Source: Ligustrum vulgare | Taxonomy: Eukaryota > Streptophyta > Magnoliopsida > Lamiales > Oleaceae | Reading direction: 5' to 3' | Assembly: GCA_963555705.1 (NCBI GenBank) | Contig: OY743180.1 | Span: forward strand, 35,248,129 to 35,312,128 | Length of the DNA stretch: 64,000 bases | In this document: piece by piece, positions 15,876 to 64,000 of the stretch | Layout of the letters: each line of letters opens with the position of its first letter | Position numbering within the stretch: position 1 is the first letter of the stretch | Program-made: the position numbers and the translations under genes | The notes under the pieces: model-generated | Told to the model about the DNA's origin: nothing | What the model saw: only the letters and a program-made list of their open reading frames with translations | Database searches by the model: none

Positions 15876-15876
15876 T

Positions 15877-21054: not shown

Positions 21055-21128
21055 CTTTGATAGTAAAGAAGGGAAAACTTACGAAGAAGATGTGATTTTG
21101 GGATGCCTGAACTATGAAATATGTTTGG

Positions 21129-21137: not shown

Positions 21138-21230
21138 GCCGGAAAAATTTACTGTTTTTGATTGATTCTGAAAAAGTAAAGATTCACTTTTTGACAAAAT
21201 CGGCCAACTTTTGACTATTTTATCAAAGAT

Positions 21231-21246
21231 ATCACCTTTCGGTGAT
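21231..21246 (-). other. ATCACC-GAAA-GGTGAT hairpin between the two genes (copy 1)
   Basis: In gene sense, a perfect 6-bp stem with a GAAA (GNRA) tetraloop, identical to 60172-60187. In copy 2 (about 33265-33280) one arm is changed and the stem is weakened. Confidence 0.55.
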
Positions 21247-21330
21247 TTATTTCCAGCTTTATCAAACCTCGAGAAAAGGAAAATATATTTATTTCCAGCT
21301 TTATCAAACCTCGAGAAAGGAAAATATATT
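21247..21330 (-). repeat. 41-bp tandem duplication between the genes, copy 1 only
   Basis: TTTATTTCCAGCTTTATCAA through GGAAAATATA is present twice in tandem with one length difference in an A run. Copies 2 and 3 have one unit. Confidence 0.85.
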
Positions 21331-21381
21331 TTATTTCCAAAACGCGTGAAAGAAAGCAGCAAATATTTTAAAAGATTTACC

Positions 21382-21933: not shown

Positions 21934-21965
21934 TGTTTGATGATTCAACCTCTTCCCAGCATGAA

Positions 21966-21974
21966 CTATTTAAA
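21966..21974 (-). promoter_or_regulatory. TATA-like box TTTAAATAG upstream of the cysteine-rich gene, copy 1
   Basis: Minus-strand TTTAAATAG lies about 32 bp before the ATG. It is conserved in position at 33978-33986 and 59472-59480. If used, the leader would be very short, so the start site may be just upstream of the ATG. Confidence 0.5.
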
Positions 21975-22695
21975 AGCGCAAGGATATGAATGAATCCGCA
22001 TGATGTTGTGTCCAGCAAGAAAGAGCAGGATTATTTTAATGGAAAAGAGGGAACAAGAGTTTATGCGCCGTTTACTTTATCGATAAAGGAGATTTGATTG
22101 GAGATTTGGAATATTTTCTTGGATTATGGGTACTGATATTTTGTTGTAATAATAATAATCATGGTATAGTGTGATAATACGTGGAAAGTAAAATGAGTAC
22201 CGTATTGAATCAGAATTCATACGTATATACAAGTGAAAGAAATACTTTGCAGGAAATGTGATGATAATTAAGTAAAGAATCTTAGTTTGGGAGATATTTG
22301 TTTAATGAATTTTTGGGTTACAAATATTGGAATGATAAGTTGATGATATTATGTTGATATGTTATTGGGTATATTACGTAGAGAGAATATTCAGGTAATT
22401 CTTTGATTATTTTGAGAATATTCGATGATAAGAAGAAAGGAAAAATTATTATGATATGATATGTCAGTAAAGATTTGTTGAAATTTTAGAGATATATACG
22501 AATATTTGAGGTCACATGATACGATAATAAGTGACAAGTTACATGAATACTACAAGATATGATGAAATTTTTACATACGATTGGGAATTGTTTTGATTAT
22601 TTTGAGAATATTCGATGATAAGAAGAAGAGATTCTGATTAAGTATTCAGAAATTATAAGATTAAGTAAGTTTAATTTCGAGGACGAAATTATTTT
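21975..22695. other. Copy 1 3' internal region, no gene seen
   Basis: AT-rich sequence related to 33987-34858 and 58610-59471, with indels. A 36-bp direct repeat (TTTGATTATTTTGAGAATAT onward) occurs at 22402-22437 and 22592-22627 only in this copy. It replaces a stretch present in copies 2 and 3. Confidence 0.6.
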
Positions 22696-22707
22696 AAGGG
22701 GGTAAGA
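22696..22707 (+). other. Polypurine tract, copy 1
   Basis: AAGGGGGTAAGA abuts the 3' LTR after the conserved TTTCGAGGACGAAATTATTT context. The same tract is at 34859-34869 and reversed at 58599-58609. Confidence 0.88.
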
Positions 22708-22708
22708 T

Positions 22709-25700
22709 TATAGCGACCCAGAATTTTATGCAATAAATAATTATTTTAATATTTAGAAAATTGAGTCGCTATTGTTTTGAAATTAATGCCGCGACGGATT
22801 CGTCTAGCCAAGTCAAGAAATATCGAATTTGTTCGATTTTAAATTAAAATCCGAATTTCTATAATTATATTATTTTAATTAAAGTATCATTTTCAAAATC
22901 ATTTTAATTCCAATATTCCTTATTAAATTATTTTAAGTCCAAAATATGTAATTCAATTTTTATCTCAAAATTCATCCATTCTCAGATTTATTTTCAGTCC
23001 AAAATATATCTGTTTTAAATACATTTCTTAATCAAAGTTAGTCTAATTTTTAGTTGATTACTTCCCACATTTTGCATTCCTCTTTATTCTCCTTTCCACC
23101 TCATTTCCAACCTATATCCACCATCAAAGCAAACACCATCATTCTCATCATCCTCAGCATCGCCGAAAGCCATTTCCAGTCCCTACTGCCAAGTTGAAAC
23201 CTTCCATGTGCAGTTTCCCCTTTCCAGCTCCATTCTCATATTCCAACCATTCTTTCCAGCAAAGTTATAGCCTCCACTTTGATCACCAACTCCACCTATT
23301 TCAATGTTCAACATCACCACCAAATTCATTTCGGAACCATTCGACAACCACTCAAATCCACCAATCTACCGCCTATCACCATACACTGCCCTCTACCATC
23401 GTCACCATCGCCGCTCAATCAAACCACCACCAAGTTGCATCACAGCTGATCATTTACAACCAGCAGACGATATCACTCCCTCTGATCACCACTACTCAAT
23501 TTTAAATCACCAAAACCAACCACTGCTAAATTTCATCAAGCAGCCATTCAATACATTCACCACCACCGAATCAAGCAGCAACCATCATCCACCAACGCTG
23601 CTATTTTCAATACCAATCCGCCCCTTTCACCATCAGTTCGCCGACCATCAACTAGCTGCCAAACACTGCAGCCGCCGCTTGCAGCCCCAAGTCAACACCC
23701 AATGCCATCGCTACCTTCTTCACCATTTCAACCGCCACCAACTCAGCACCCTCATCACCCATTTTCGAATCAGCCACCTCGAACCCAAAATCAACCCAAA
23801 CCCAAGAATAAGCCAAACAAAGTACTTACCTCACCTCAGACCACCATTGGACAGATTTTGGCCGAAAAGCACAAATCCGATTTCGATTTCCAGCTTTGAT
23901 TTGGTTTCGGTTTCACACAATAAACCACCCAAATAACTTCCTTCAACCACCCCACTGCTACCCTGGCAGCCGCCGCTTGACCACGGCGTTTCACCGGCAA
24001 ATCGCCGGCAGTACCTCCGCCGGACCCAAACTCTGCGTTTTTCTCTCGGACTGATTCAGAGAGTATATGAGAGAGAGAGAGGGTAAAGATATGATATATT
24101 ATAAAATCTGATTTATTTTAATACTTTCGGAAATTACTTTTTGGTCCTTGAAGTTTTAAAGATTTCAAATCAGCCCCTCAAGTTTTGAAATGTTTTAATC
24201 CAGCCCTTTTAGCTTCAAACTTATCATTTCAGTCCCTGCTGATTTTATTAATTTGATTTTAAGCTCAACTTTCAAAAGTATTCATTTTAATCTCTCAACT
24301 TTCAAAATATCTATTTTAGTCCCTCAACTATCAAAAGTATTCATTTTAATCCCTCAACTTTCAAAATATCTATTTTAGTCCCTGAACTTTCAAAAGTATT
24401 CATTTTAGTCCCTCAACTTTCAAAACATCAATTTTAGTCCTCAAATTATAATTTATCATTTTGAACTATATATTCGATAGACTAAAGTGACTTATTGGCT
24501 AAGACGAAGCGTACGGAGAATTTAAAGAAATTGAAGTCATTCCCGCTCAACTTTGCACTCGTCGGATTTGAGGTAGACTCGCACTTATTAATTGATTTAA
24601 ATTATGATTTCATATGAATGTCATGTGACTTGTGAAAGTCAATTTTTAAGAAAAGCAAGTATGTTGTTATGAAAGGTAAATATACCTTATGTTGTTATGA
24701 AAAGTAAGTATGTTTTTATGGAAAGAAAATATACTTTATGTTTTTACGAGAAAAGTAAGTATACCCTATGCTTCACGAAAATGTTTTTTTTTGGATCATT
24801 GCTATGAAATCAATCTACCAAGATTGTTTTGGGTCCCATATGATAAGTTATGATATGTTAAGGGGACCGGAGTTTTAGTAGCGCTACACATAAGAATTCT
24901 TGCCACGAAGTTCGGTAACATTCTTGTGTCTCCTATGTTTATGAGGATTTGCCACGAAGTTCGGTAAAATTCCTGTGTTTCCATATGTTTATGAGGATTT
25001 ACCACCTAAGTTCGGTAAAATTCCTGTCGCATATGTTTATGAGGATTTCGATCCTATCTTATGTTATGATGCAATTGATCCCTATGAATTTCAAAAATTA
25101 TGCTTGGTATACTTACTGTGATTTTACTGTTATTATGATTTTACTGCATAAGAATTCTTGCCACCTAAGTTCGGTAAAGTTCTTGTATGTTTATGAGGAT
25201 TTAAATCCTATCTTATGTTATGCTTTCAAAAGAAATTATGCTTGGCATAATTAAAATGTTTTTATAAGTATATGGTTTTCAAAGAGATGTTTTCAAAGAG
25301 ATGTTTTCAAAGAGTTGTTTTCAAAGAGCTGTTTTCAAAGAGATGTTTTCAAAGAGATGTTTTCAAAGAGCTGTTTTCAAAGAGCTATTTTCAAAAGAGC
25401 TGTTTTCAAAGAGCTGTTTTCAAAGAACTATTTTCAAAGAGATGTTTTCAAAGAGCTGTTTTCAAAGAGCTATTTTCAAAGAGCATATGATTTGCAAAAT
25501 ATGTCCCGTGCTGTAATGCACAATATGAGTTTTATCAAGAGCCGTTTTATAAAGAAGCTCTATCAATGCCCGTTTTATAAAGAGCCGGGATTTATGTGTT
25601 TAATCATCTTATAAATTAAATTAATATGCGATGAGTCTACTGAGTATTTCCCCCATGAAATACTCACCCTACTTTTTAACAGTTTTGCAGATTTCGGAGA

Positions 25701-26028
25701 CGGTGGCGAGCAATGAATGATGGTGGCAATAATCGTTAAACGGTTGAAAGTTTGACGTTAATGATTTCCGTATTTTTCCAAACAATCGAATAATTTAGAG
25801 AAGTTCATTTATTTGAGAAATTATGACATTGTCAATTTCTTTATAAAATTAATGGTTCGATTTACTATTTCAAATGGTTTCATAAATGTTTCAATTTTAT
25901 CGGCCATTACAGTTTATTTAATGTTGCCAAAAATGAATTTCAATTATTTCTTCCGCAAAAATATTATTCGAAAAATTTAGACAGAAAATGACGTAGTGAA
26001 TCGGGTATACGGAACTCGGGGCGCTACA
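22709..26028 (+). repeat. 3' LTR of copy 1 (3320 bp)
   Basis: Same length as the 5' LTR. I noticed single-base differences at about 16009/22848, 17300/24132, 17888/24721, 18879/25712 and 19122/25955. Internal repeats recur at +6833. Confidence 0.93.
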
Positions 26029-28851: not shown

Positions 28852-29149
28852 TGTAGCGACCAAGAATTTTTACGCGATTAATAATTATTTTAATAGAAAA
28901 TCGTGTCGCTACTATTTCACCCATTTTTATTAAGTTAACGCCGCGACGTATTCGTATAGCCAAGTCAAGAAATAATCGAGATCGTTCGATTTTAAATTAA
29001 ATTCCGAAATTCTAAAAATATCTCCATTCTCTTGATTTAAAGTATATTAAGTCCAAGTACTTAATTCAATGTTATCCCAATATTTATTTATACAAAAATT
29101 ATTTTTATTATTGAAATTAAGAAAATATATGCAAGCATGAGAGGTTCCA

Positions 29150-29486
29150 TTATATATAATAATTATGAGAATCTTAATTTAATAAATATGGAAAAGTATA
29201 TGAATGAATTATATACTCCATTATATATAATCATGAAGAGCATAATATTGTATAAATATGGAAAAGTATATGAATGAATTATATACTCCATTATATGTAA
29301 TCATGAAGAGCATAATATTTGTATAAATATGGAAAAGTATATGAATGATTGATAAGACTCCATTATATGTAATCATGAAGAGCATAATATTTGTATAAAT
29401 ATGGAAAAGTATATGAATGAATTATATACTCCATTATATATAATCATGAAGAGCATATTATTTGTATAAATATGGAAAAGTATATG
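29150..29486 (+). repeat. 70-72 bp tandem repeat in LTR, ~5 units
   Basis: Unit carries GGAAAAGTATATGAATGA, ATTATATATAATCATGAAG and AGCATAATATTTG. GGAAAAG recurs at about 29190, 29260, 29331, 29403 and 29474. Also at 35170-35506 and, reversed, at about 57810-58310, where there are seven or so units. Confidence 0.9.
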
Positions 29487-30200
29487 AAAGGTAAATACAC
29501 CTTATATTTTTATGAAAAGTAAGTATGTTTTTATGACAAGTAAGTATATCTTATGTTTTTATGAAAAGTAAGTATATTTTTATGAAAGGTAAATACACCT
29601 TATGTTTTTATGAAAAGTAAGTATGTTTTTATGACAAGTAAGTATATCTTATGTTTTTATGAAAAGTAAGTATGTTTTTATGAAAGGTAAATACACCTTA
29701 TGTTTTTATGAAAAGTAAGTATGTTTTTATGACAAGTAAGTATATCTTATGTTTTTATGAAAATTAAGTATGTTGTTATGAAATGTAAGTATATCTTATG
29801 TTTTTATGAAAATTAAGTATGTTGTTATGAAATGTAAGTATATCTTATGTTTTTATGAAAATTAAGTATGTTGTTATGAAATGTAAGTATATCTTATGTT
29901 TTTATGAAAAGTAAGTATGTTTTTATGAAAGGTAAATACACCTTATATTTTTATGAAAAGTAAGTATGTTTTTATGACAAGTAAGTATATCTTATGTTTT
30001 TATGAAAAGTAAGTATGTTTTTATGAAAGGTAAATACACCTTATATTTTTATGAAAAGTAAGTATGTTTTTATGACAAGTAAGTATATCTTATGTTTTTA
30101 TGAAAAGTAAGTATGTTTTTATGAAAGGTAAATACACCTTATGTTTTTATGAAAAGTAAGTATGTTTTTATGACAAGTAAGTATATCTTTATGTTTTTAT
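29487..30200 (+). repeat. ~98-bp composite tandem array in LTR
   Basis: Short modules (GAAAAGTAAGTATGTTTTTAT, GACAAGTAAGTATATCTTAT, GAAAGGTAAATACACCTTAT) are arranged in ~98-bp super-units. GAAAGGTAAATACACC recurs at about 29486, 29584 and 29682. Also at 35507-36220, 57265-57590 (reversed) and from about 63815 to the window end. Copy 1 LTR has three diverged modules at 17816-17935. Confidence 0.9.
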
Positions 30201-31235
30201 GAAAATATTTGGATCATTGCTATGAAATCAATCTCACAAGATTGTTATGGGTTCCATATGATATGTTTATGATTATGCTAAGGGGACCGGAGTTTAGTAG
30301 CGCTACACATAAGAATTCTTGCCATTTAAGTTCGGTAAAATTCTTGTGTCTCCCTATATTTATGAGTATTTCGATCCTATCCTATGTTATGATGAAAATG
30401 ATCCATATGCTTTCAAAAGAAAATTTATGCTTGGTATACTTACTGGGATTTTATAAATCTCACTCTACGATATTTACCATTTTCAGATAATTGAAGGTTC
30501 GAGGCGGTCAACATGGAAGTGGCAAAAGTGGTTAAGATTGATGAGATAATTATGTTGAACTTTATGTAAGAAAATTATGTTCTATTTATATTCACAAATA
30601 AAATTATGGGATTCTAATTATTCTTTTGAATAATTTTACATTACTATTTAAGTCTCGATAATATGATATGAGTCACTTTTAGTGGCACTCGAATGGTCAA
30701 GATTTCGGGTCGTCACAGTTGGTGATATGATGTTTATATTGATGTCTTTGATAAATTTCTAGAAGTTCGGGGACTAAAGGAAAATAAGATTTGACGATAA
30801 ATTTTTATTTGGGTTAATTAGGCCCAATCTTATGTAAAGATGCGAAATGATTAATAATTATTATTTTTTTTTGAAATATTTTAACTCATCACTCTACTAT
30901 GTCACTCTCCACGTATTGACTCCTCGAACCAGGTATGTTATATGCTTTGCAGGTCATTTACGATTTTATTAAGACATGTTAAGTATGAAATATTCATATG
31001 TTATGAATCTTTAAGTGAAATATACATGTTGAGTATGATATGAATTGATAGAAGCCTAAATTTTAAATTTATTCCTTTTAATGTAGAATCATGAGACATA
31101 GAGGATATTGATATGAATTTTGGTTCATATTAAGCTTAGTAAGACTGACTAAATTAGAAAAATAAGTTGGTTCGTAACTTTTGCCAAAAATATATGGAAT
31201 AATATATTACAAACAAAATTAATAATGAATTCGTA

Positions 31236-31458: not shown

Positions 31459-32210
31459 CAGAAAGAAAGAACGAGTGTTTAGTATAATGAAAAAAATATG
31501 ATTTACGAATGATTTTCAAAATAATCTTTGTCGTCAAGTTTAGAAATGATGAGCCCTAAATGGACTTTGCATAATTGATTTTAGACATGGCACTAAGTAT
31601 GAGAAGTCAACAGAAAGGACTAGATAATATTTTCGAATTATTCATCGTTTAGATTAAACGAGAAATAGAAAGTCAGTTTTATGAAGTTATGATGAGATGT
31701 TGAGATTATAAGTGATATGATTTTATTGAGATTTTTATGAGAAGAATTATGAAGTTGGAGATTTAAAGTTTAGGCTCTTAATTATTGAGAAATAAGGACT
31801 TGATATGGTGATATTAGAAATTATGATTTGAAATTTCTATGTTGAGGAATTATGAATTGATTTTCTGGAATATTTATGATGATATTGAAGTTTGATGAAA
31901 TTGTGATCAAATGTACAATTAGTTATTATTGTGAGTTATGAAGTATGCTTACGATTTGGATAAGTCCAAATTTCAAAGGAAAACTGCCTAGAATTTTATC
32001 GTTTGGAGTTAAGAGCATAGTATGGTATGCAATCACTAAGAGAATTGAGGTTAGACATACAAGTTCATTTACATCACAAACGAGATTTAGTAGATGATAA
32101 CAGAGATATTATTATTTTCTCATAAGGAGAACACATAAGAGTCACCCTAGAAAGGAAATACATGAAACACGCAAAAGCAAAAGAAAGCAACATGGGAAAT
32201 TCCTCAAATT

Positions 32211-32428
32211 GAGAGATGTGTTTCCGGAGTAGCCGTATCCTACCACGTCTGACCTTTTGAGGAAATAAAGAAACCTTCAAAGAGGTGTGTTTCGAGAGTA
32301 AGAATACTCCGTAATCTACCACCTGGAACCTTTGAGGTACACACAAGATTTAAACATTAAGGAAAATCCTAGGAAATTAGAGGGGTGTCTCGAGAGTAAG
32401 AATACTCCGTACTCTACCCCCACCTATT
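32211..32428 (-). repeat. Three hairpin-forming repeats downstream of LOG (copy 2)
   Basis: Same layout as 20175-20393 and 61026-61248. Two units keep GAGTA-AGAA-TACTC. The unit farthest from LOG has a shorter GGAGTAGCCGTATCC core. Confidence 0.6.
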
Positions 32429-32435
32429 CTAAGAT

Positions 32436-33089
32436 TCATAAAGTTAAGTTTACATTAACCGGACTCCATTTTCGCTTGATTCCCCTTCCTTGCGACCAAT
32501 CTATCTTAACCCCTGCTGGATCTTGTATTGAGATATATGACTGCAGCTTATCCAGTAGTTCATCAATAGTAGGAGCAGAAATAAGAAGCCTTCTGGAAAA
32601 TGGAGAGATGAATCCCTGTTCCACAGCATAATCAAGAAAGGTTAACAAGCCATCAAAGAAATTGTTAACATTCAAAAGCCCAATAGGCTTAGTATGGAGA
32701 TCTAGTTGAGCCCATGAGGTAATGTTAAAGATTTCTTCTAAGGTACCAAAACCTCCGGGCAGGGCTATAAAGGCACCAGAACCATATAGCATACAAGTTA
32801 TGCGTTCATGGATGGATAAGGTTTGAACTTCATGCCCTCGTATTTTTCCTGCAACATCTACCAAAGGGACAGGTATGACACCGATTACTTTTGATTTCTC
32901 TGCAAGAGCAGATTGGGAAACACAACCCATTAGACCACTGCTACCACCCCCATACACAAGAGTGATACCTTTTTCCCCCAGTTTCTTTCCAAGATCTACG
33001 GCCGCTTCTAGATAACTGAAGTCTTTCCCCACTTTTGATCCACAAAATACACAAATAGTTTTGATATGTCGAAGTTTTGGTGCTTCCAT
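32436..33089 (-). CDS. LOG: LOG-type cytokinin riboside 5'-monophosphate phosphoribohydrolase, copy 2
   Basis: 217 aa, single open frame, with the full C-terminal tail. It keeps CVFCGS, VYGGGSSGLMG, Arg96 and PGGFGTLEE. Two changes are notable: Asp105, just before the substrate-loop motif FIALPGG, is Gly here, and Thr83 is Ile. Against copy 1 I count 5 replacement and 9 silent differences over the shared 202 codons, plus the copy 1 stop. As replacement sites outnumber silent ones roughly three to one, this points to past purifying selection. The D105G change could impair this copy. It lies 310 bp downstream of the cysteine-rich gene on the same strand, with a TTTAAATAG box 75 bp before the ATG. 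Confidence 0.85.
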   Translation of the reverse strand: MEAPKLRHIKTICVFCGSKVGKDFSYLEAAVDLGKKLGEKGITLVYGGGSSGLMGCVSQSALAEKSKVIGVIPVPLVDVAGKIRGHEVQTLSIHERITCMLYGSGAFIALPGGFGTLEEIFNITSWAQLDLHTKPIGLLNVNNFFDGLLTFLDYAVEQGFISPFSRRLLISAPTIDELLDKLQSYISIQDPAGVKIDWSQGRGIKRKWSPVNVNLTL

Positions 33090-33163
33090 CTTTGATAGTA
33101 TAGAAGAGAAAACTTACGAAGAAGATGTGATTTTGGGATGCCTGAACTATGAAATATGTTTGG

Positions 33164-33172
33164 CTATTTAAA
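33164..33172 (-). promoter_or_regulatory. TATA-like box TTTAAATAG upstream of LOG, copy 2
   Basis: Same nonamer and spacing as in copies 1 and 3, within a conserved block running from the box to the ATG. Confidence 0.55.
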
Positions 33173-33399
33173 GCCGGAAAAATTTACTGTTTTTGATTGA
33201 TTCTGAAAAAGTAAAGATTTACTTTTGACAAAATCAGCCTACTTTTGACTATTTTATCAAAGCTTTCATCTTTCGGTGATTTAGTTTCCAGCTTTATCAA
33301 ACCTCGAGAAAGGAAAATATATTTTTACTAACCTTTATCAAAACGCGTGAAAGGAAACAGAAGAATATTTTAAATATGTATCAAGAGATTTACCTTATA

Positions 33400-33945
33400 T
33401 CAATGCTGATTTGCCACAACCTCATTGTGTAAAACAGACTGGCAGACATGATCTTTTGCAGTTATATTTTTGAGACTATAACGATTTTTGTCTTCGTTAA
33501 ACTGAGCGTATAAGGAGAGAAGTTCACGTTGCACATAACCACTTGGGTGCGTCTCAAGAGTCAGTCGAATATCATCCAAAGGCTCCTTACTCAGTCCACC
33601 CTTTATGAAATTGATTTTATCATCCCGATTAGTAGAAGAATATCCTACTGTTTTGCAACGAGTATCACAGTTCCAACGAGCACATTTGTAGCAACCATTC
33701 AGCCTTTTTGCTCTTTGTTTCTTTGCGAAGGTGCTTTTGCCTAAACCAGGCATGTGCTTTGGAAATGTCATAGGTAATTCACCAGATAATCGAACTTTTG
33801 CTTCGATCAACCAGCGAACATCTTCTGGAATACCATGAGCCATCAGCAACCTCAACCTTTCGAGCCTAATTCGATAAATTTTTCTCAGATCATTCATAGG
33901 AAGATTGGAATAATACTTGCGAATGTTTGAAAGGATGATATCCAT
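33400..33945 (-). CDS. Cysteine-rich basic protein resembling flexivirus nucleic-acid-binding protein, copy 2 (altered C-terminus)
   Basis: 181 aa from the conserved ATG. The four cysteines (85, 88, 93, 97) and most of the basic patch are intact, with Arg77 changed to Gln. The last eight residues differ from those of copies 1 and 3 because of a small deletion near the stop that shifts the frame, and it then ends at a nearby TGA. The core is unaffected. The gene is first in the antisense cassette, followed by LOG. Family assignment rests on the same motif pattern as in copy 1. Confidence 0.63.
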   Translation of the reverse strand: MDIILSNIRKYYSNLPMNDLRKIYRIRLERLRLLMAHGIPEDVRWLIEAKVRLSGELPMTFPKHMPGLGKSTFAKKQRAKRLNGCYKCARWNCDTRCKTVGYSSTNRDDKINFIKGGLSKEPLDDIRLTLETHPSGYVQRELLSLYAQFNEDKNRYSLKNITAKDHVCQSVLHNEVVANQH

Positions 33946-33977
33946 TTTTGATGGATCTAACCTCTTCCCAACATGAT

Positions 33978-33986
33978 CTATTTAAA
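33978..33986 (-). promoter_or_regulatory. TATA-like box TTTAAATAG upstream of the cysteine-rich gene, copy 2
   Basis: Conserved in all copies about 32-35 bp before the ATG. Confidence 0.5.
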
Positions 33987-34858
33987 GGTATAAAGGAACT
34001 AAGTGGATCCATCTGATATTGATTTCAGCAAGAAAACGCGGAATAGAATAATGAAAAGAAGAGACAAGAATTAATGCGCTGTTTAATTTTATCGATAAAG
34101 GAAGATTTGATGATAAGATTTTGAGATACAGAATATTTTCTTGGATTTGGTACTGATATTTTTGGTATAATAATAAGTAATTAAGGTATGGTGTGATGAT
34201 ACGGGAATACGTGAAAGTGAAATAAGGACCGTATCGAATCAGAATTCATAAGTATGTACAAGTGAAAGAAATACCTTGCGGGAAATGTTGTGACAATTAA
34301 GTGAAGAATTTTAGTTATTTGGGAGCTAATTATTTATTTGCATTTTGCAGAACGTTTTGGTTACAAATATGGGAAAAGATAAGCTGATGATATTATGTTG
34401 ATTGATGAATAATATGTTTGGATATATTACATAGGGAATATTCAGGTAACCATTTTATTTACTTTGGGATATTTGGTGATAAGAAGAAATGACTAATTAT
34501 TATGGTATGATATGTTAGTAAAGATTTATTAAAATTTTAGAGATATTAATACGAATATTTGAGGTCACATGATACGATGATAAGTGACAGGTTACATGAG
34601 TACTACAAGACATGATGAAATATCACATACGATTGGGAATTTTCCTTTTGAGTCAGAATTTATGAGTAGACACATATGTCTATTATTGATAGAAAAGTCC
34701 ATGTTTTTAAGAAAAACAAAGATATGCATTTAGTCAAAGTCCAGTGGGTTAAATATAGTAGCAATGATACTACCTAAGAGAAGAAGAGAAGAGATTCTGA
34801 TTAAGTGTTCAGAAATCATAAGATCAAGTAAGTTTAATTTCGAGGACGAAATTATTTT
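33987..34858. other. Copy 2 3' internal region, no gene seen
   Basis: AT-rich, related to copy 3 (58610-59471) over its length and to copy 1 with gaps. It would contain whatever upstream control the antisense genes have. I see no further genes. Confidence 0.6.
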
Positions 34859-34869
34859 AAGGGGGTAAG
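34859..34869 (+). other. Polypurine tract, copy 2
   Basis: AAGGGGGTAAG directly precedes the 3' LTR. Confidence 0.88.
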
Positions 34870-34871
34870 TT

Positions 34872-36737
34872 TGTAGCGACCAAGAATTTTTACGCGATTA
34901 ATAATTATTTTAATAGAAAATCGTGTCGCTACTATTTCACCCATTTTTATTAAGTTAACGCCGCGACGTATTCGTATAGCCAAGTCAAGAAATAATCGAG
35001 ATCGTTCGATTTTAAATTAAATTCCGAAATTCTAAAAATATCTCCATTCTCTTGATTTAAAGTATATTAAGTCCAAGTACTTAATTCAATGTTATCCCAA
35101 TATTTATTTATACAAAAATTATTTTTATTATTGAAATTAAGAAAATATATGCAAGCATGAGAGGTTCCATTATATATAATAATTATGAGAATCTTAATTT
35201 AATAAATATGGAAAAGTATATGAATGAATTATATACTCCATTATATATAATCATGAAGAGCATAATATTGTATAAATATGGAAAAGTATATGAATGAATT
35301 ATATACTCCATTATATGTAATCATGAAGAGCATAATATTTGTATAAATATGGAAAAGTATATGAATGATTGATAAGACTCCATTATATGTAATCATGAAG
35401 AGCATAATATTTGTATAAATATGGAAAAGTATATGAATGAATTATATACTCCATTATATATAATCATGAAGAGCATATTATTTGTATAAATATGGAAAAG
35501 TATATGAAAGGTAAATACACCTTATATTTTTATGAAAAGTAAGTATGTTTTTATGACAAGTAAGTATATCTTATGTTTTTATGAAAAGTAAGTATATTTT
35601 TATGAAAGGTAAATACACCTTATGTTTTTATGAAAAGTAAGTATGTTTTTATGACAAGTAAGTATATCTTATGTTTTTATGAAAAGTAAGTATGTTTTTA
35701 TGAAAGGTAAATACACCTTATGTTTTTATGAAAAGTAAGTATGTTTTTATGACAAGTAAGTATATCTTATGTTTTTATGAAAATTAAGTATGTTGTTATG
35801 AAATGTAAGTATATCTTATGTTTTTATGAAAATTAAGTATGTTGTTATGAAATGTAAGTATATCTTATGTTTTTATGAAAATTAAGTATGTTGTTATGAA
35901 ATGTAAGTATATCTTATGTTTTTATGAAAAGTAAGTATGTTTTTATGAAAGGTAAATACACCTTATATTTTTATGAAAAGTAAGTATGTTTTTATGACAA
36001 GTAAGTATATCTTATGTTTTTATGAAAAGTAAGTATGTTTTTATGAAAGGTAAATACACCTTATATTTTTATGAAAAGTAAGTATGTTTTTATAACAAGT
36101 AAGTATATCTTATGTTTTTATGAAAAGTAAGTATGTTTTTATGAAAGGTAAATACACCTTATGTTTTTATGAAAAGTAAGTATGTTTTTATGACAAGTAA
36201 GTATATCTTTATGTTTTTATGAAAATATTTGGATCATTGCTATGAAATCAATCTCACAAGATTGTTATGGGTTCCATATGATATGTTTATGATTATGCTA
36301 AGGGGACCGGAGTTTATTAGCGCTACACATAAGAATTCTTGCCATTTAAGTTCGGTAAAATTCTTGTGTCTCCCTATATTTATGAGTATTTCGATCCTAT
36401 CCTATGTTATGATGAAAATGATCCATATGCTTTCAAAAGAAAATTTATGCTTGGTATACTTACTGGGATTTTATAAATCTCACTCTACGATATTTACCAT
36501 TTTCAGATAATTGAAGGTTCGAGGCGGTCAACATGGAAGTGGCAAAAGTGGTTAAGATTGATGAGATAATTATGTTGAACTTTATGTAAGAAAATTATGT
36601 TCTATTTATATTCACAAATAAAAGTATGGGATTCTAATTATTCTTTTGAATAATTTTACATTACTATTTAAGTCTCGATAATATGATATGAGTCACTTTT
36701 AGTGGCACTCGAATGGTCAAGATTTCGGGTCGTCACA
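34872..36737 (+). repeat. 3' LTR of copy 2 (1866 bp)
   Basis: Differs from the 5' LTR at positions I noticed near 36316 (G to T), 36092 (G to A) and 36624 (T to G). Array copies lie at +6020 relative to the 5' LTR. Confidence 0.93.
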
Positions 36738-56751: not shown

Positions 56752-58596
56752 TGTGACGACCCGAATTCTCTTCCATTCGAGTGCCACTAAAAGTGACTCA
56801 TATCATATTATCGAGACTTAAATAGTAATGTAAAATTATTCAAAAGAATAATTAGAATCCCATAATTTTATTTGTGAATAAAAATAGAACATAATTTTCT
56901 TACATAAAGTTCAACATAATTATCTCATCAATCTTAACCACTTTTGCCACTTCCATGTTGACCGCCTCGAACCTTCAATTATCTGAAAATGGTAAATATC
57001 GTGGAGTGAGATTTATAAAATCCCAGTAAGTATACCAAGCATAAATTTTCTTTTGAAAGCATATGGATCATTTTCATCATAACATAGGATAGGATCGAAA
57101 TACTCATAAACATAGGGAGACACAAGAATTTTACCGAACTTAAATGGCAAGAATTCTTATGTGTAGCGCTACTAAACTCCGGTCCCCTTAGCATAATCAT
57201 AAACATATCATATGGAACCCATAACAATCTTGTGAGATTGATTTCATAGAAATGATCCAAACATTTTCATAAAAACATAAGATATACTTACTTGTCATAA
57301 AAACGTACTTACTTTTCATAAAAACATAAGGTGTATTTACCTTTCATAAAAACATACTTACTTTTCATAAAAACATAAGATATACTTACTTGTCATAAAA
57401 ACATACTTACTTTTCATAAAAACATAAGGTGTATTTACCTTTCATAAAAACATACTTACTTTTCATAAAAACATAAGATATACTTACTTGTCATAAAAAC
57501 ATACTTACTTTTCATAAAAACATAAGGTGTATTTACCTTTCATAAAAACATACTTACTTTTCATAAAAACATAAGATATACTTACCTTTTAAAAGATTAA
57601 AATGAAGTGTAGTAGTAAATGGACCAAAACTTTCTTGACCACCTTGAATTTCTCTTACTTGTGGATTTTGTCAAGAGATTGGAAATAAGTGTATATGTGT
57701 AGAGTTGTGTGTAAAAGAGATGGGTTTAAATAGATGTATAAAGTTGGCATATTGTAAACATAATCATTCAATTCTATTAATTTTAACACATCCTTTTCTT
57801 AAAGTAAAGCACCATTCATATACTTTTCCATATTTATACAAATAATATGCTCTTCATGATTATATATAATGGAGTCTTATCAATCATTCATATACTTTTC
57901 CATATTTATACAAATATTATGCTCTTCATGATTATATATAATGGAGTCTTATCAATCATTCATATACTTTTCCATATTTATACAAATATTATGCTCTTCA
58001 TGATTATATATAATGGAGTATATAAATCATTCATATACTTTTCCATATTTATACAAATATTATGCTCTTCATGATTATATATAATGGAGTATATAAATCA
58101 TTCATATACTTTTCCATATTTATACAAATATTATGCTCTTCATGATTACATATAATGGAGTCTTATCAATCATTCATATACTTTTCCATATTTATACAAA
58201 TATTATGCTCTTAATGATTATATATAATGGAGTATATAAATCATTCATATACTTTTCCATATTTATACAAATATTATGCTCTTCATGATTACATATAATG
58301 GAACCTCTCATGCTTGCATATATTTTCTTAATTTAAATAATAAAAGTAATTTTTGTACAAATAAATATTGGGATAACATTGAATTAAGTACTTAGACTTA
58401 ATATACTTTAAATCAAGAGAATGGAGATATTTTTAGAAATTCGGAATTTAATTTAAAATCGAACGATCTCGATTATTTCTTGACTTGGCTATACGAATAC
58501 GTCGTGGCGTTAACTTAATAAAAATGGGTGAAATAGTAGCGACACGATTTTCTATTAAAATAATTATTAATCGCGTAAAAATTCTTGGTCGCTACA
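56752..58596 (-). repeat. 3' LTR of copy 3 (1845 bp)
   Basis: Reads TGTGACGACC...GGTCGCTACA on the plus strand, the reverse of TGTAGCGACC...GGTCGTCACA. It has a shorter ~98-bp array (57265-57590), a unique segment (57587-57815) and a longer ~70-bp array (57810-58310). Confidence 0.92.
57587..57815 (-). promoter_or_regulatory. Likely core promoter segment of the copy 3 LTR
   Basis: Unique sequence between the two tandem arrays, missing from copy 2. On the element strand it has CTATTTAAACC (57724-57734) followed by a CA-rich pyrimidine stretch (ACACACAACTC, about 57700), typical of a plant TATA and start region. Inferred from sequence only. Confidence 0.45.
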
Positions 58597-58598
58597 AA

Positions 58599-58609
58599 CT
58601 TACCCCCTT
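58599..58609 (-). other. Polypurine tract, copy 3
   Basis: CTTACCCCCTT on the plus strand, i.e. AAGGGGGTAAG on the element strand, next to the 3' LTR. Confidence 0.88.
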
Positions 58610-59471
58610 AAAATAATTTCGTCCTCGAAATTAATCTTACTTGATCTTATGATTTCTGAACACTTAATCAGAATCTCTTCTTCTTCTTCTTATGTAGCAT
58701 CATCGCTACCATATTTAACCCACTGGACTTTGACTAAATGCATCAATTTGTTTTCTTAAGACATGGACTTTTCTATCAATAATAGACATATGTCTACTCA
58801 TAAATTCTTCTGAATCAAAATGAAAATTCCCAATCGTATGTGATATTTCATCATATCTTGTAGTATTCATGTAACTTGTCATTTATCATCGTATCATGTG
58901 ACCTCAAATATTCGTATTAATATCTCTAAAATTTCAATAAATCTTTACTAACATATCATACCATAATAATTTGTCATTTCTTCTTATCACCAAATATCCC
59001 AAAATAATTAAAACGATTACCTGAATATTCTCTATGTAATATACCCAAACATGTTATTCACATATCAACATAATCATCAGTTTATCTTTCCAATATTTGT
59101 AACCCAAAATTTCTGCAAAATTCAATAAACAAATATCTCCCAAATAATTAAAATTCTTAACTCAAATATCATAACATTTCCCGTAAGGTATTCCTTTCAC
59201 TTGCACAAACTTATTAATCCTGATTCAATACAGTCCTTATTTCACTTTCACGTATCCCCGTATTATTTCTATACCTTGATTATTATATCAAAATATCAGT
59301 ACCCAAAATCCAAGAAAATATTCCATATCTCAAATCCCGTCATCATCAAATCTTCCTTTTATCAAGAAAGTAAACGGCGCATAAACTCTTGTTCCCTCTT
59401 TTCCATTATTCTATTCCGCGCTTTCTTGCTGGAATCAATATCACGAAAAATTCCCTCCGATCCTTAATGCT
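58610..59471. other. Copy 3 3' internal region, no gene seen
   Basis: AT-rich, equivalent to 33987-34858. Upstream of the cysteine-rich gene, an in-frame open stretch from 59389 starts at TTG and is not conserved as coding. Confidence 0.6.
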
Positions 59472-59480
59472 TTTAAATAG
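59472..59480 (+). promoter_or_regulatory. TATA-like box TTTAAATAG upstream of the cysteine-rich gene, copy 3
   Basis: Ends 34 bp before the ATG at 59515. The flank GTTCATGCTGGGAAGA is conserved with copy 1. Confidence 0.5.
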
Positions 59481-59514
59481 TTCATGCTGGGAAGATGTTA
59501 GATCCATCAAAAAC

Positions 59515-60066
59515 ATGGATATCATTCTTACAAACATTCGCAAGTATTATTCCAGTCTTCCAATGAATGATCTGAGGAAAATTTATCGAATAAGACTCGA
59601 AAGATTGAGGTTGCTGATGGCTCATGGTGTTTCAGAAGATGTTCGCTGGTTGATCGAAGCAAAGGTTCGACTATCTGGTGAATTACCTATGACATTTCCA
59701 AAGCACATGCCTGGTTTAGGCAAAAGCACCTTCGCAAAGAAACGAAGAGCAAAAAGGCTGAATGGTTGCTACAAATGTGCTCGTTGGAACTGTGATACTC
59801 GTTGCAAAACAGTAGGATATTCTTCTACTAATCGGGATGATAAAATCAAATTCATAAAGGGTGGACTGAGTAAGGAGTCTTTGGATGATATTCGACTGAC
59901 TCTTGAGACGCACCCAAGTGGTTATGTGCAACGTGAACTTCTCTCCTTATACGCTCAGTTTAACGAGGACAAAAATCGTTATAGTCTCCAAAATATAATA
60001 GCAAAAGATCCTGTTTGCCAGTCTGTTTTACAAAATGAGGCTTCTGGCAGTTCAACAATGATATAA
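59515..60066 (+). CDS. Cysteine-rich basic protein resembling flexivirus nucleic-acid-binding protein, copy 3
   Basis: 183 aa, intact. The start is the ATG shared by all copies; an upstream open extension begins at a non-ATG codon. The N-terminal ~65 residues are rich in Arg and Leu and probably helical. Then come the basic patch (71-82), Cys85, Cys88, Cys93 and Cys97, and a Ser/Asn-Arg-Asp-Lys segment to about 116. The tail after 120 is polar. No signal peptide or membrane segment is apparent. In flexiviruses such proteins bind nucleic acid, and some act in the nucleus as transcription regulators. Here a nucleic-acid-binding role is inferred from the motif only. It could instead be a plant zinc-ribbon-like protein with convergent spacing. 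LOG follows 296 bp downstream on the same strand. Confidence 0.66.
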   Translation: MDIILTNIRKYYSSLPMNDLRKIYRIRLERLRLLMAHGVSEDVRWLIEAKVRLSGELPMTFPKHMPGLGKSTFAKKRRAKRLNGCYKCARWNCDTRCKTVGYSSTNRDDKIKFIKGGLSKESLDDIRLTLETHPSGYVQRELLSLYAQFNEDKNRYSLQNIIAKDPVCQSVLQNEASGSSTMI

Positions 60067-60171
60067 GGTAAATCTCTTGATACACATTTAAAATATTTTG
60101 CTGTTTTCTTTCACGCGTTTTGGAAATAAAATATATTTTCCTTTCTCGAGTTTTGATAAAGCTGGAAATAA

Positions 60172-60187
60172 ATCACCGAAAGGTGAT
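60172..60187 (+). other. ATCACC-GAAA-GGTGAT hairpin between the two genes (copy 3)
   Basis: Perfect 6-bp stem with GNRA-type loop, 106 nt after the cysteine-rich gene stop and 92 nt before the LOG TATA-like box. Could lie in the 3' untranslated region of the first gene. Confidence 0.55.
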
Positions 60188-60279
60188 ATCTTTGGTAAAA
60201 CAGTCAAAAGTTGGCCGATTTTGTCAAAAGTAAATCTTTACTTTTTCATAATCAATCAAAAACAGTAAATTTTTTCGGC

Positions 60280-60288
60280 TTTAAATAG
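60280..60288 (+). promoter_or_regulatory. TATA-like box TTTAAATAG upstream of LOG, copy 3
   Basis: Lies 74 bp before the LOG ATG. Two TCAAAAGT motifs (about 60205 and 60224), whose complements contain TTGAC cores like W-boxes, lie upstream. Conserved in all copies. Confidence 0.55.
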
Positions 60289-60362
60289 CCAAACATATTT
60301 CATAGTTCAGGCATCCCAAAATCACATCTTCTTCGTAAGTTTTCTCTTCTATACTATCAAAG

Positions 60363-61016
60363 ATGGAAGCACCAAAACTTCGACATATCAAAACTATTTG
60401 TGTATTTTGTGGATCAAAAGTGGGGAAAGGCTTCAGTTATCTAGAAGCGGCCGTAGATCTTGGAAAGAAACTGGGGGAAAAAGGTATCACTCTTGTGTAT
60501 GGGGGTGGTAGCAGTGGTCTAATGGGTTGTGTTTCCCAATCTGCTCTTGCAGAGAAATCAAAAGTAATCGGTGTCATACCTGTCCCTTTGGTAGATGTTG
60601 CAGGCAAAACACGAGGGCATGAAGTTCAAACCTTATCCATCCATGAACGCATAACTTGTATGCTATATGGTTCTGATGCCTTTATAGCCCTGCCCGGAGG
60701 TTTTGGTACCTTAGAAGAAATCTTTAAGATTACCTCGTGGGCTCAACTAGATCTCCATACTAAGCCTATTGGGCTTCTGAATGTTAACAATTTCTTTGAT
60801 GGTTTGTTAACCTTTCTTGATTATGCTGTGGAACAGGGATTCATCTCTCCATTTTCCAGAAGGCTTCTTATTTCTGCTCCTACTATTGATGAACTACTGG
60901 ATAAGCTGCAGTCATATATCTCAATACAAGATCCAGCAGGGGTTAAGATAGATTGGTCGCAAGGAAGGGGAATCAAGCGAAAATGGAGTCCGGTTAATGT
61001 AAACTTAACTTTATGA
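60363..61016 (+). CDS. LOG: LOG-type cytokinin riboside 5'-monophosphate phosphoribohydrolase, copy 3 (most intact)
   Basis: 217 aa, the usual length for plant LOGs. It has the Rossmann-like start with CVFCGS (13-18), the nucleotide-binding loop VYGGGSSGLMG (45-55), Arg96 in the HER motif, DAFIALPGGFGTLEE (105-119) with Glu119, and the plant-typical SWAQL and KPIGLLNV blocks (125-141). Asn122 of copies 1 and 2 is Lys here. Ile97 replaces the usual Lys. There are no introns. Known LOG enzymes convert cytokinin ribotides to free bases and control meristem activity. Expression of a mobile copy could raise local cytokinin, but that is inference. It lies downstream of the cysteine-rich gene, and hairpin repeats follow. 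Confidence 0.88.
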   Translation: MEAPKLRHIKTICVFCGSKVGKGFSYLEAAVDLGKKLGEKGITLVYGGGSSGLMGCVSQSALAEKSKVIGVIPVPLVDVAGKTRGHEVQTLSIHERITCMLYGSDAFIALPGGFGTLEEIFKITSWAQLDLHTKPIGLLNVNNFFDGLLTFLDYAVEQGFISPFSRRLLISAPTIDELLDKLQSYISIQDPAGVKIDWSQGRGIKRKWSPVNVNLTL

Positions 61017-61025
61017 ATCTTAGAA

Positions 61026-61248
61026 TAGGTGGGGGTAGAGTACGGAGTATTCTTACTCTCGAGACACCCCTCTAATTTCCTAGGATTTTCCTTAATGTTT
61101 AAATCTTGTGTGTACCTCAAAGGTTCCAGGTGGTAGATTACGGAGTATTCTTACTCTCGAAACACACCTCTTTGAAGGTTTCTTTATTTCCTCAAAAGGT
61201 CAGAGGTGGTAGGATACGGCTACTCCGGAAACACATCTCTCAATTTGA
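61026..61248 (+). repeat. Three hairpin-forming repeats downstream of LOG (copy 3)
   Basis: First unit: GAGTA (61045-61049), loop TTCT, TACTC (61054-61058), with an outer GGGGT/ACCCC pairing. Second: AGGTG...CACCT around the same core. Third: AGAGGTG...CATCTCT around a shorter core. They start about 10 nt after the LOG stop and so probably lie in its 3' untranslated region. Confidence 0.62.
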
Positions 61249-61249
61249 G

Positions 61250-62173
61250 GAATTTCCCATGTTGCTTTCTTTTGATTTTGCGTGTTTCATGTATTTCTTT
61301 CCAATGTGACTCTTGTGTGTTCTCCTTACGAGAAAATAATAAATATCTCTGTTATCATCTACTAAATCTCGTTTGTGATGTAAATGAATTTGCATGTCTA
61401 ACCTCAATTCTCTTAGTGATTGCATACCATACTATGCTCTTAATTCCAAACGATAAAATTCTAAGCAGAGTTTCCTTTGAAATTTGGACTTATTCAAACC
61501 GTAAGCATACTTCATAACTCACAATAATAAATAATTCCACATTTGATCACAACGATCTAAAAATTGACCACAATTTCATCAAACTTCAATATCATAAAAA
61601 AAATATTCCAGAAAATCAATTCATAATTCCTCAACATAGAAATTTCAAATCATAGTCGTCAATATCACAATATCACTTCCTTCAATACCTTAATTGGCTC
61701 AAAAGATTACTCATACTTATATTTATAAGTCATAAATCATATTCCCAAAATTTAATCACAAGGCCAAAGTTCATAATAAATTTCTCTTCAATATAGAGGC
61801 ATAATTCACTTACTCAACATAATATCCATTACTTAATTCCCAATAACCAAATCTTTAAATCTCTAACTTCATAATGCTTCTCATAAAAGTCTCATTAAAA
61901 TCATATCACTTATAATCTTAACATCTCATAAAAATTCATAAAATTGGCTCGCTATTTCTCATTAAATCTAAATGATAGATAATCTGAACATATTTCTAAT
62001 CATTTCTGTTGACTTCTCATACTTAATGCCATGTCTAAAATCAATTATGCAAAGTCCATTTAAGGTTTATCATTTCTAAACTCGAGGACAACAATTATTT
62101 TGAAAATCATTCTTAAGTCATATTATTCCCATTATGCTCAACACCCGTTCTCTTTCTTTCTTTTCTTTCTGAA
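61250..62173. other. Copy 3 internal region between the hairpins and the T tract, no gene seen
   Basis: AT-rich, related to 31457-32210 (reversed) and partly to 19528-20174. A 67-codon frame over the hairpins (61106-61309) starts at TTG and is shorter than its counterparts in the other copies because of a frame change, so I do not call it a gene. Confidence 0.6.
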
Positions 62174-63278: not shown

Positions 63279-63290
63279 GCTCTGATACCA
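63279..63290 (-). other. Primer-binding site, initiator-Met tRNA type, copy 3
   Basis: GCTCTGATACCA on the plus strand, i.e. TGGTATCAGAGC on the element strand, 2 bp from the LTR. Confidence 0.9.
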
Positions 63291-63292: not shown

Positions 63293-64000
63293 TGTGACGA
63301 CCCGAATTCTCTTCCATTCGAGTGCCACTAAAAGTGACTCATATCATATTATCGAGACTTAAATAGTAATGTAAAATTATTCAAAAGAATAATTAGAATC
63401 CCATAATTTTATTTGTGAATAAAAATAGAACATAATTTTCTTACATAAAGTTCAACATAATTATCTCATCAATCTTAACCACTTTTGCCACTTCCATGTT
63501 GACCGCCTCGAACCTTCAATTATCTGAAAATGGTAAATATCGTGGAGTGAGATTTATAAAATCCCAGTAAGTATACCAAGCATAAATTTTCTTTTGAAAG
63601 CATATGGATCATTTTCATCATAACATAGGATAGGATCGAAATACTCATAAACATGGGGAGACACAAGAATTTTACCGAACTTAAATGGCAAGAATTCTTA
63701 TGTGTAGCGCTACTAAACTCCGGTCCCCTTAGCATAATCATAAACATATCATATGGAACCCATAACAATCTTGTGAGATTGATTTCATAGAAATGATCCA
63801 AACATTTTCATAAAAACATAAGATATACTTACTTGTCATAAAAACATACTTACTTTTCATAAAAACATAAGGTGTATTTACCTTTCATAAAAACATACTT
63901 ACTTTTCATAAAAACATAAGATATACTTACTTGTCATAAAAACATACTTACTTTTCATAAAAACATAAGGTGTATTTACCTTTCATAAAAACATACTTAC
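63293..64000 (-). repeat. 5' LTR of copy 3, partial
   Basis: Matches 56752-57459 with about two visible differences and continues past the window end. Confidence 0.92.

What the first reader, a model, noticed from the sequence alone, without database searches (positions are those of the whole stretch)
59472..61248. A two-gene cassette (virus-like nucleic-acid-binding protein plus LOG cytokinin enzyme) carried antisense in three retrotransposons
All three LTR elements lack gag/pol but keep the same gene pair in the same order and orientation, opposite to the element: 21933 to 20446, 33945 to 32436, and 59515 to 61016. LOG is a host hormone-activating enzyme, and the partner resembles plant RNA-virus cysteine-rich proteins. 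Some of those viral proteins, for example in chrysanthemum virus B, are known to act as transcription regulators that cause tissue overgrowth. An element that makes cells proliferate or persist in meristems would raise its chance of germline transmission. I know of no described retrotransposon with this pair. The selfish-proliferation role is speculation.
Basis: partly seen in the sequence, partly recalled or inferred. Interest (0 to 1): 0.93.

Follow-up and report, generated by a model that had tools for sequence, protein, structure and literature searches.

The report
Two-gene cassette shared by plant retrotransposons
A pair of genes, one resembling a plant-virus nucleic-acid-binding protein and one a cytokinin-activating enzyme, rides backwards inside a great many copies of several otherwise unrelated kinds of jumping DNA in a plant genome and bears the mark of natural selection, which suggests that the jumping DNA gains something from it.

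Summary
Three LTR elements without detectable gag/pol carry the same two genes (NABP, then LOG), antisense to the element by PBS/PPT. It reaches beyond the window: first-look scans of the window's own 1.385-Gb genome gave 7,995-9,116 candidates per query (150 scored each). All 50 loci first fetched hold both genes in one order and strand. A 2.0-kb cassette recurs in three LTR backbones that otherwise show no match: the window type, a copia type with gag, and a short-LTR type with a half-tRNA-Ile-like PBS. It is antisense in all nine elements inspected. Median dN/dS between subfamilies is 0.18 (NABP) and 0.10 (LOG). Of 120 nearest LOG relatives, 92 end in LxLxL, the EAR corepressor motif; 0 of 120 host LOG3-type proteins do; the window copies have a relaxed form or none. 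The LOG half was already known in LTR elements of Citrus and Populus. The pair, the shared cassette and the tail I found in no paper searched. Best reading: a selected accessory cassette acting on the host cell in favour of the element. Silencing control, corepressor recruitment and cytokinin activation are inferred, not shown.

The parts
15876..19195 (+). Element A, 5' LTR (3.3 kb); target-site duplication AAGGT at 15871-15875
19199..19210 (+). Element A, primer binding site, tRNA-Met type
20138..22168 (-). Element A, cassette core shared with the copia-type and short-LTR-type elements
20446..21054 (-). Element A, LOG (202 aa, lacks the C-terminal tail)
21382..21933 (-). Element A, NABP (183 aa)
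22692..22708 (+). Element A, polypurine tract
22709..26028 (+). Element A, 3' LTR; target-site duplication AAGGT at 26029-26033
28852..30717 (+). Element B, 5' LTR (1.87 kb); target-site duplication AAGGT at 28847-28851
32167..34176 (-). Element B, cassette core
32436..33089 (-). Element B, LOG (217 aa, tail ...NVNLTL)
33400..33945 (-). Element B, NABP (181 aa)
34855..34871 (+). Element B, polypurine tract
34872..36737 (+). Element B, 3' LTR; target-site duplication AAGGT at 36738-36742
56752..58596 (-). Element C, 3' LTR
58597..58613 (-). Element C, polypurine tract
59270..61251 (+). Element C, cassette core
59471..59480 (+). TATA-like box upstream of NABP (TTTTAAATAG); TTTAAATAG kept in 20 of 25 aligned copies by my reading
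   Evidence: promoter function inferred
59515..60066 (+). Element C, NABP (183 aa) with basic patch and C-x2-C-x4-C-x3-C
60226..60245 (+). Palindromic block upstream of LOG, exact in B and C, near in A, half-sites vary in other copies
   Evidence: function unknown
60280..60289 (+). TATA-like box upstream of LOG (TTTAAATAGC); TTTAAATAG kept in 20 of 25 aligned copies by my reading
   Evidence: promoter function inferred
60363..61016 (+). Element C, LOG (217 aa), tail KRKWSPVNVNLTL
63279..63290 (-). Element C, primer binding site, tRNA-Met type
63293..64000 (-). Element C, 5' LTR (runs past the window end; genome match to C13:35313266)

Best explanation
The pair is an accessory gene cassette of LTR retrotransposons. 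It is about 2.0 kb, holds two genes that each appear to have their own promoter (inferred from TATA-like boxes), and is carried antisense, so that it travels in the element's genomic RNA without (inferred) its own termination signals cutting that RNA short. SHOWN: it sits in three LTR backbones that match each other nowhere else, in one genome; both proteins are under purifying selection between subfamilies; related proteins of both kinds occur in other eudicots. INFERRED: it was captured long ago and has moved to new backbones by recombination or template switching between co-packaged RNAs. INFERRED, less sure: the products act in trans on the host cell. NABP, akin to carlavirus cysteine-rich proteins (silencing suppressors or transcription regulators), would bind nucleic acid and dampen silencing or alter transcription. 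LOG would release active cytokinin and, in relatives with the KRK-LxLxL tail, could bind a TOPLESS-type corepressor in the nucleus. The net effect would be a cell state that favours transcription of the elements and their passage to the germline. Rough odds: selected mobile cassette 0.9; moved between backbones in this lineage 0.85; acts on the host in favour of the element 0.6; the particular molecular steps 0.3-0.4 each.
For: Both genes, same order and strand, in 50 of 50 fetched gene-selected loci and both present in 10 of 10 LTR-selected elements. dN/dS medians 0.18 for NABP (170 pairs with dS>0.1, of 210; 21 of 23 rows) and 0.10 for LOG (170 of 231 pairs; 22 of 23 rows); within the window 0.21-0.38 and 0.17-0.31. 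With a foreign LOG as query, 143 of the 150 scored genome places have no stop. The cassette core is 77-86% identical between backbones; no other match over 150 bp (L051-L053 against the window) or 300 bp. Types: window A/B/C and L054; copia gag type L051 and L055 (gag E 4.9e-24); short-LTR type L052, L053, L056 with a GTTATCAGCACGA PBS in L056. In the copia type 61 of 130 gag places have a listed LOG place 0-2.6 kb downstream on the opposite strand and none on the same strand; 69 have none listed. Two related copia units without the cassette lack one block of 2.25 or 2.77 kb around it. Mobile-type LOGs fall on one side of a branch with support 100. Tail LxLxL in 92 of 120 against 0 of 120 host LOG3-type. 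NABP and LOG hits share contig lengths beyond chance (4 at 1.5-50 kb, expected 0.43); two Orobanche gene models hold both domains.
Against: No transcript, protein or activity data. Purifying selection shows that the proteins matter to whoever propagates them, not what they do; selection for a host benefit is not excluded. The one very young pair in view (L009 and C, dS about 0.01, below the dS cut) had ratios of 0.56 and 0.79. The intergenic stretch is as conserved among A, B and C (93-95%) as NABP itself, so recent common descent or exchange of the whole cassette also plays a part. The strict LxLxL is relaxed in this genome (VNVNLTL or VNVNLSL) and lost in element A, L002, L003 and L015, so the corepressor step may not hold here. 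The antisense rule rests on few independent captures (three backbones). No autonomous element carrying the cassette was found. dS of LOG is lower than dS of NABP among A, B and C, which gene conversion could explain. The AlphaFold model of NABP is poor (mean pLDDT 59.5).
Confidence: 0.62

Rival explanations
1. Passive passengers: the genes were transduced once, and amplification alone spread them; their open frames are merely young.
For: LTR pairs of most elements inspected are 98.8-99.9% identical, so these copies are young; gene capture by plant LTR elements is well known (PMC7264820, first of three parts read).
Against: dN/dS 0.10-0.18 across subfamilies with median dS 0.46-0.64; the family recurs across eudicots; the same cassette sits in three backbones.
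Confidence: 0.08
2. The LOG acts mainly as a corepressor bait or nuclear regulator (LxLxL tail after a KRK cluster) and its enzymatic fold is a scaffold.
For: LxLxL at the C end in 92 of 120 related LOGs against 0 of 120 host LOG3-type, 1.7% expected by shuffling the tails; the 120 are dominated by a few genera, so they are not independent.
Against: The catalytic-type motif PGGxGTxxE is kept in 108 of 120, about as often as in the host list (109 of 120); the tail is relaxed or lost in the window's genome and in some other relatives.
Confidence: 0.25
3. The LOG acts as a cytokinin-activating enzyme that keeps carrier cells dividing.
For: Closest solved relatives are plant LOGs, At2g37210 first; PGGFGTLEE and GGGSSGLMG are kept in the window copies; dN/dS is lower for LOG than for NABP.
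Against: No expression or activity data; LOG needs a supply of cytokinin nucleotides; with many copies a strong effect on growth should harm the host, so expression must be limited in time or place.
Confidence: 0.4
4. The pair is a host locus or host-domesticated gene pair that merely received LTR insertions.
For: LOG is a host enzyme family.
Against: The pair lies between LTRs with PBS, PPT and target-site duplications in several elements; 150 of 150 scored NABP places encode an identical protein, spread over contigs C1-C8; the mobile-type LOGs lie apart from the host LOGs sampled.
Confidence: 0.02

Closest known systems
LTR elements with a LOG/YgdH extra ORF (Steinbauerova et al. 2011, two Athila-like elements with LOGL4 similarity - recalled, paper not held; Citrus and Populus consensuses in PMC9289625, passages read)
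   Same: A LOG-family gene as an extra ORF in plant LTR retrotransposons; Populus is also among my hits.
   Different: Here NABP accompanies LOG, pol is gone and gag is gone or alone, and the same cassette sits in several backbones; the passages read mention no NABP and no tail motif.
Retand antisense ORFs with TRP28 domain (PMC11963269, passages read); antisense aORFs of Grande, RIRE2, PvRetro13 (PMC7264820, first of three parts read)
   Same: Antisense extra ORFs, one probably DNA-binding, some elements non-autonomous.
   Different: Different proteins (no TRP28); two genes; found in more than one backbone; in the window elements no pol.
Carlavirus cysteine-rich proteins, e.g. chrysanthemum virus B p12 (PMC12172455, passages read)
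   Same: Pfam Viral_NABP/Carla_C4 match over a basic patch and zinc-finger-like cysteines.
   Different: 183 aa, C-x2-C-x4-C-x3-C, N- and C-terminal parts predicted helical at low confidence, encoded in LTR elements; no other viral gene was seen beside it.
Non-autonomous LTR elements: LARD and TR-GAG types (recalled)
   Same: No pol; LTR-pair spacing 6.3-7.5 kb in the A and C families among the 40 copies scored of each; gag-only form in the copia type.
   Different: Conserved coding cassette under purifying selection.

Membership tests
LTR retrotransposon (element level) | Two near-identical LTRs, PBS, PPT, target-site duplication | tested here: met
   A complete; B complete except a degenerate PBS; C cut by the window end; L051, L054, L055, L056 complete; L052 and L053 only in part
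LTR retrotransposon (element level) | gag and pol (autonomy) | tested here: not met
   No gag/pol domain in ten scanned frames of A-C; copia-type L051/L055 keep gag, no pol seen
Ty3/gypsy Tekay or Athila lineage for the window type | RT/RH/INT phylogeny | not testable with these tools
   No pol in the elements; the termini and PPT resemble Tekay/Del by recall only; the PBS is tRNA-Met type
Ty1/copia for L051/L055 | copia-type gag | tested here: met
   Retrotran_gag_2 E 4.9e-24 in L055, 1e-12 plus zf-CCHC in L051; no RT to place the lineage
Bianca lineage of Ty1/copia for L052/L053/L056 | PBS complementary to the edited half tRNA-Ile | tested here: inconclusive
   GTTATCAGCACGA next to the 5' LTR of L056, close variant in L053, not looked for in L052; the match to half tRNA-Ile was judged by recall; that Bianca uses it is in PMC6317226 (passages); no RT
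LOG cytokinin phosphoribohydrolase | PF03641 fold and PGGxGTxxE, GGGxxGLMG motifs | tested here: met
LOG cytokinin phosphoribohydrolase | Phosphoribohydrolase activity on cytokinin nucleotides | not testable with these tools
   Needs recombinant protein
Carlavirus NABP / Viral_NABP | Pfam match above curated cut-off | tested here: met
   32.7 bits vs 23 (PF05515), 23.1 vs 20.9 (PF01623) for copy C
Carlavirus NABP / Viral_NABP | Encoded by a viral genome next to coat protein (recalled) | tested here: not met
   Downstream neighbour is LOG in 50 of 50 fetched loci
EAR-motif protein | LxLxL (motif recalled) | tested here: inconclusive
   Met in 92 of 120 related LOGs; window copies B and C have VNVNLTL, A has none
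EAR-motif protein | Binding to TOPLESS-type corepressor | not testable with these tools
   Needs an interaction assay

The most novel reading that the evidence does not exclude
A transferable helper cassette of retrotransposons: a virus-related nucleic-acid-binding protein and a nuclear, corepressor-recruiting cytokinin enzyme that travel together, in reverse, from one LTR lineage to another, probably across superfamilies, and that manipulate host hormone state and silencing for whichever element carries them, much as accessory genes do for viruses.
Probability: 0.35. Interest if true: 0.9.

Novelty: new variant of a known kind. Interest (0 to 1): 0.78.

Why it matters
Extra antisense ORFs of plant retrotransposons have no established function (PMC7264820, first of three parts; PMC11963269, passages). 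Here is a case with a clear enzyme family, a viral kinship, a recognisable regulatory tail in relatives, measured purifying selection and presence in unrelated backbones. That makes it a testable example of a retrotransposon that may act on host hormones or silencing, and it gives two small proteins that can be assayed directly.

Tried and rejected
Host locus with nested LTRs: rejected by PBS, PPT, target-site duplications and copy number. Neutral passengers: disfavoured by dN/dS. Viral contigs as a source of related loci: 6 stretches matched a pattern, none confirmed. Fold of NABP: the model was too poor, so no fold search was run. PDB search with NABP: six hits, the best at E 0.24, none an evident relative. 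Autonomous partner: no LTR pair wider apart than 6.3-7.5 kb among the 40 scored places of the A LTR (of 8,313 candidates) and of the C LTR (of 1,057). Among the 40 scored for the copia LTR (of 4,067) the pairs found lie 4.0-6.1 kb apart. So autonomous copies may exist lower in the ranking. A chromodomain search did not complete. My regular expressions for the arginine motif were badly written (0 hits in both lists), and the combined 'strict' one (70 of 120 related, 108 of 120 host) mixes substitutions and cut sequences; none of them is used as evidence.

Literature: 9 searches. None of the papers listed showed, in what I saw of them, the NABP-LOG pair or an NABP in an LTR element; most subscription journals are not held, and Steinbauerova 2011 is not held.

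Full report
WHAT IS THERE. The window is plant DNA (inferred from the genes and their relatives): a satellite array of 843- and 924-bp units with three inserted LTR elements. Element A runs 15876-26028 (+), B 28852-36737 (+), and C starts at 56752 and runs past the window end on the - strand. LTR pairs are 99.85% (A), 99.84% (B) and 99.7% (C, 709 bp in view) identical. A and B have the flanking duplication AAGGT. PBS of tRNA-Met type and PPT fix the orientation: A and B on +, C on -; B has only a degenerate PBS. The gene pair runs the other way in all three. Ten reading frames from the elements gave no gag/pol match.

THE GENES. LOG (217 aa; 202 in A) matches PF03641 at E 1.1e-33 to 2.3e-32, its nearest solved relative is Arabidopsis At2g37210 (E 4.7e-58), and it keeps PGGFGTLEE and GGGSSGLMG. 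NABP (181-183 aa) matches Viral_NABP and Carla_C4 above their cut-offs. In an alignment of 40 rows two of the four finger cysteines are invariant and the other two nearly so; C-x2-C-x4-C-x3-C is found in 106 of 120 listed relatives. The AlphaFold model is mostly helical but of low confidence.

COPY NUMBER. The window's genome (1.385 Gb, 51 contigs) gave 7,995 first-look candidates for PF03641, 8,801 for NABP and 9,116 for the foreign LOG P0125; 150 of each were scored, and unscored candidates are not confirmed copies. 149 of 150 PF03641 places have no stop in the match; 150 of 150 NABP places encode a protein identical to the query, all on C1-C8. These lists are the best matches and so are biased to intact copies. 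With P0125 as query, 143 of 150 had no stop. All 50 loci fetched hold both genes in the same order and strand. Among the 30 chosen for NABP, LOG is full length with its ATG in 27; among the 20 chosen for PF03641, NABP has 176-183 residues in 18 and is broken in 2, and LOG itself is full length in 16, three others lacking the tail and one cut by a stop. Ten elements chosen by their C-type LTR pairs (all pairs but the window's own) all hold both genes; each gene has a full-length frame with its ATG in 8 of 10, both together in 7 of 10.

SELECTION. Between A, B and C dN/dS is 0.21-0.38 for NABP and 0.17-0.31 for LOG. Coding identity is 92-95% (NABP) and 98-99% (LOG), outer flanks are 83-91% where they align, but the intergenic stretch is 93-95% and the first 230 bp after LOG 95-99.6%. 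Across L001-L020 and the window copies, with broken rows left out (2 of 23 for NABP, 1 of 23 for LOG; tail-less LOGs kept) and pairs with dS above 0.1, the medians are 0.18 (range 0.12-0.38; 170 of 210 pairs) for NABP and 0.10 (0.05-0.23; 170 of 231 pairs) for LOG. The young pair L009-C, below the dS cut, had 0.56 and 0.79. Pairs are not independent.

ONE CASSETTE, THREE BACKBONES. Full contexts were fetched for six more copies. L054 is of the window type (LTRs 99.8%, duplication ACTAA). L051 and L055 are copia-type: LTRs of about 1.8-1.9 kb (TGTTGACC...GGTCAACA), tRNA-Met PBS, Retrotran_gag_2 gag (intact in L055, interrupted in L051), no pol seen, duplications GACTT and CATAT. L052, L053 and L056 have short LTRs (about 190-250 bp where both are seen, L053 and L056), the PBS GTTATCAGCACGA in L056 and a close variant in L053, and duplication TTATC in L056. 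The three types share only the cassette, at 77-86% (C 59270-61251; B 32167-34176; A 20138-22168); no other match over 150 bp or 300 bp was reported. In all nine elements (A, B, C, L051-L056) the genes are antisense; L052 and B rest on the PPT alone. In the copia type, 61 of 130 gag places have a listed LOG on the opposite strand 0-2.6 kb downstream, none on the same strand, and 69 have none listed, partly because my LOG list was partial. Two tandem gag-only units of that type (L067, L068) lack the cassette: the missing block is 2,766 or 2,247 bp with one common edge, and about 90-150 bp without a match stands in its place. Capture or later loss are both possible. NABP and LOG trees place all 12 cassettes of this genome that were used in one clade, together with one near relative from an unnamed contig in each tree (support 99/98 and 100/99). 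Within it the copia type is a supported group in both trees, the short-LTR type only in the NABP tree and the window type only in the LOG tree. The change of backbone thus most likely happened within this lineage.

OTHER PLANTS. NABP relatives (343 at E<=1e-3, 120 listed) include Orobanche, Populus, Xanthoceras and Acer; LOG relatives (7,226, 120 listed) include Reevesia, Diplodiscus, Populus, Xanthoceras and Diospyros. That a listed relative lies in a mobile element is mostly inferred from similarity. That the pair is linked elsewhere rests on two Orobanche gene models with both domains, the LOG part incomplete (P0017, P0019), and on shared contig lengths (4 at 1.5-50 kb, 0.43 expected, 3 of 5,000 simulations as high). 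Forty mobile-type LOGs (37 of the 120 listed relatives and 3 window copies) form one side of a branch with SH-aLRT support 100 and length 0.93 against 22 host rows (21 of 120 LOG1/3-type and LOG8). The two sets came from two searches with different queries, which favours such a split, and other host LOG subfamilies were not in the tree.

THE TAIL. 92 of 120 listed LOG relatives end in LxLxL (within three residues of the end), 88 of them with a basic cluster before it; 0 of 120 host LOG3-type proteins do; shuffled tails give 1.7%. This is the form of the EAR corepressor motif (recalled). A few genera supply many of the 120. In this genome the tail reads KRKWSPVNVNLTL or near it, a relaxed form, and some copies, A among them, have lost it.

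EXPRESSION SIGNALS. TTTAAATAG stands upstream of each gene in 20 of 25 aligned copies by my reading; a palindromic block upstream of LOG is exact in B and C and varies elsewhere. Promoter function is inferred.

HOW IT MAY WORK. Viral proteins of the NABP kind suppress silencing and, for chrysanthemum virus B p12, act as a transcription factor that causes hyperplasia (PMC12172455, passages). LOG releases active cytokinin bases (established for the family, recalled). A nuclear LOG with an EAR tail could recruit a corepressor. The antisense placing, with separate promoters, would let the cassette ride in the genomic RNA without ending it early. These steps are inference. What is measured is presence, selection and occurrence in several backbones.

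KNOWN AND NEW. Antisense extra ORFs are known in plant LTR elements (PMC7264820, first of three parts; PMC11963269, passages), and a LOG domain in Citrus and Populus elements is in print (PMC9289625, passages, citing Steinbauerova 2011, which I recall as reporting LOGL4 similarity in two Athila-like elements but could not read). I found no paper with NABP in an LTR element, with the pair, with one cassette in several backbones, or with the tail (only open-licence PubMed Central papers; listings and passages, not whole texts).

Noticed in passing
15871-15875, 26029-26033, 28847-28851, 36738-36742: Elements A and B, with different LTRs, sit at the same point of the satellite monomer with the same duplication AAGGT: a preferred site or exchange between elements.
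   Followed up: partly
window 1-15870 and 36743-56751: Satellite array of 843- and 924-bp units (44 copies of one 300-nt stretch, 96-100% alike for the 30 shown) that hosts the insertions.
   Followed up: no
G000:C2:24821734, C11:7518362, C22:1301668 and following: Whole elements in tandem at constant steps (about 6.1, 6.06 and 6.6 kb), probably by unequal exchange between LTRs.
   Followed up: no
15876-19195: The LTR of element A looks composite: other matches cover its first or its last part or are less alike, and only its own pair matches in full at once among the 40 places scored.
   Followed up: no
LOG and NABP of A, B, C: Synonymous divergence of LOG (0.03-0.06) is well below that of the neighbouring NABP (0.13-0.24); gene conversion or another constraint.
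   Followed up: no
61030-61250: Imperfect repeats of a GGTGGTAGA..TACGG..CTCTCGAAACACACCTCT motif follow the LOG stop within the cassette (read).
   Followed up: no
L067, L068, C16:40316456 and following: Copia-type gag units at steps of 3.4-4.0 kb in tandem, without the cassette in the two units fetched.
   Followed up: partly
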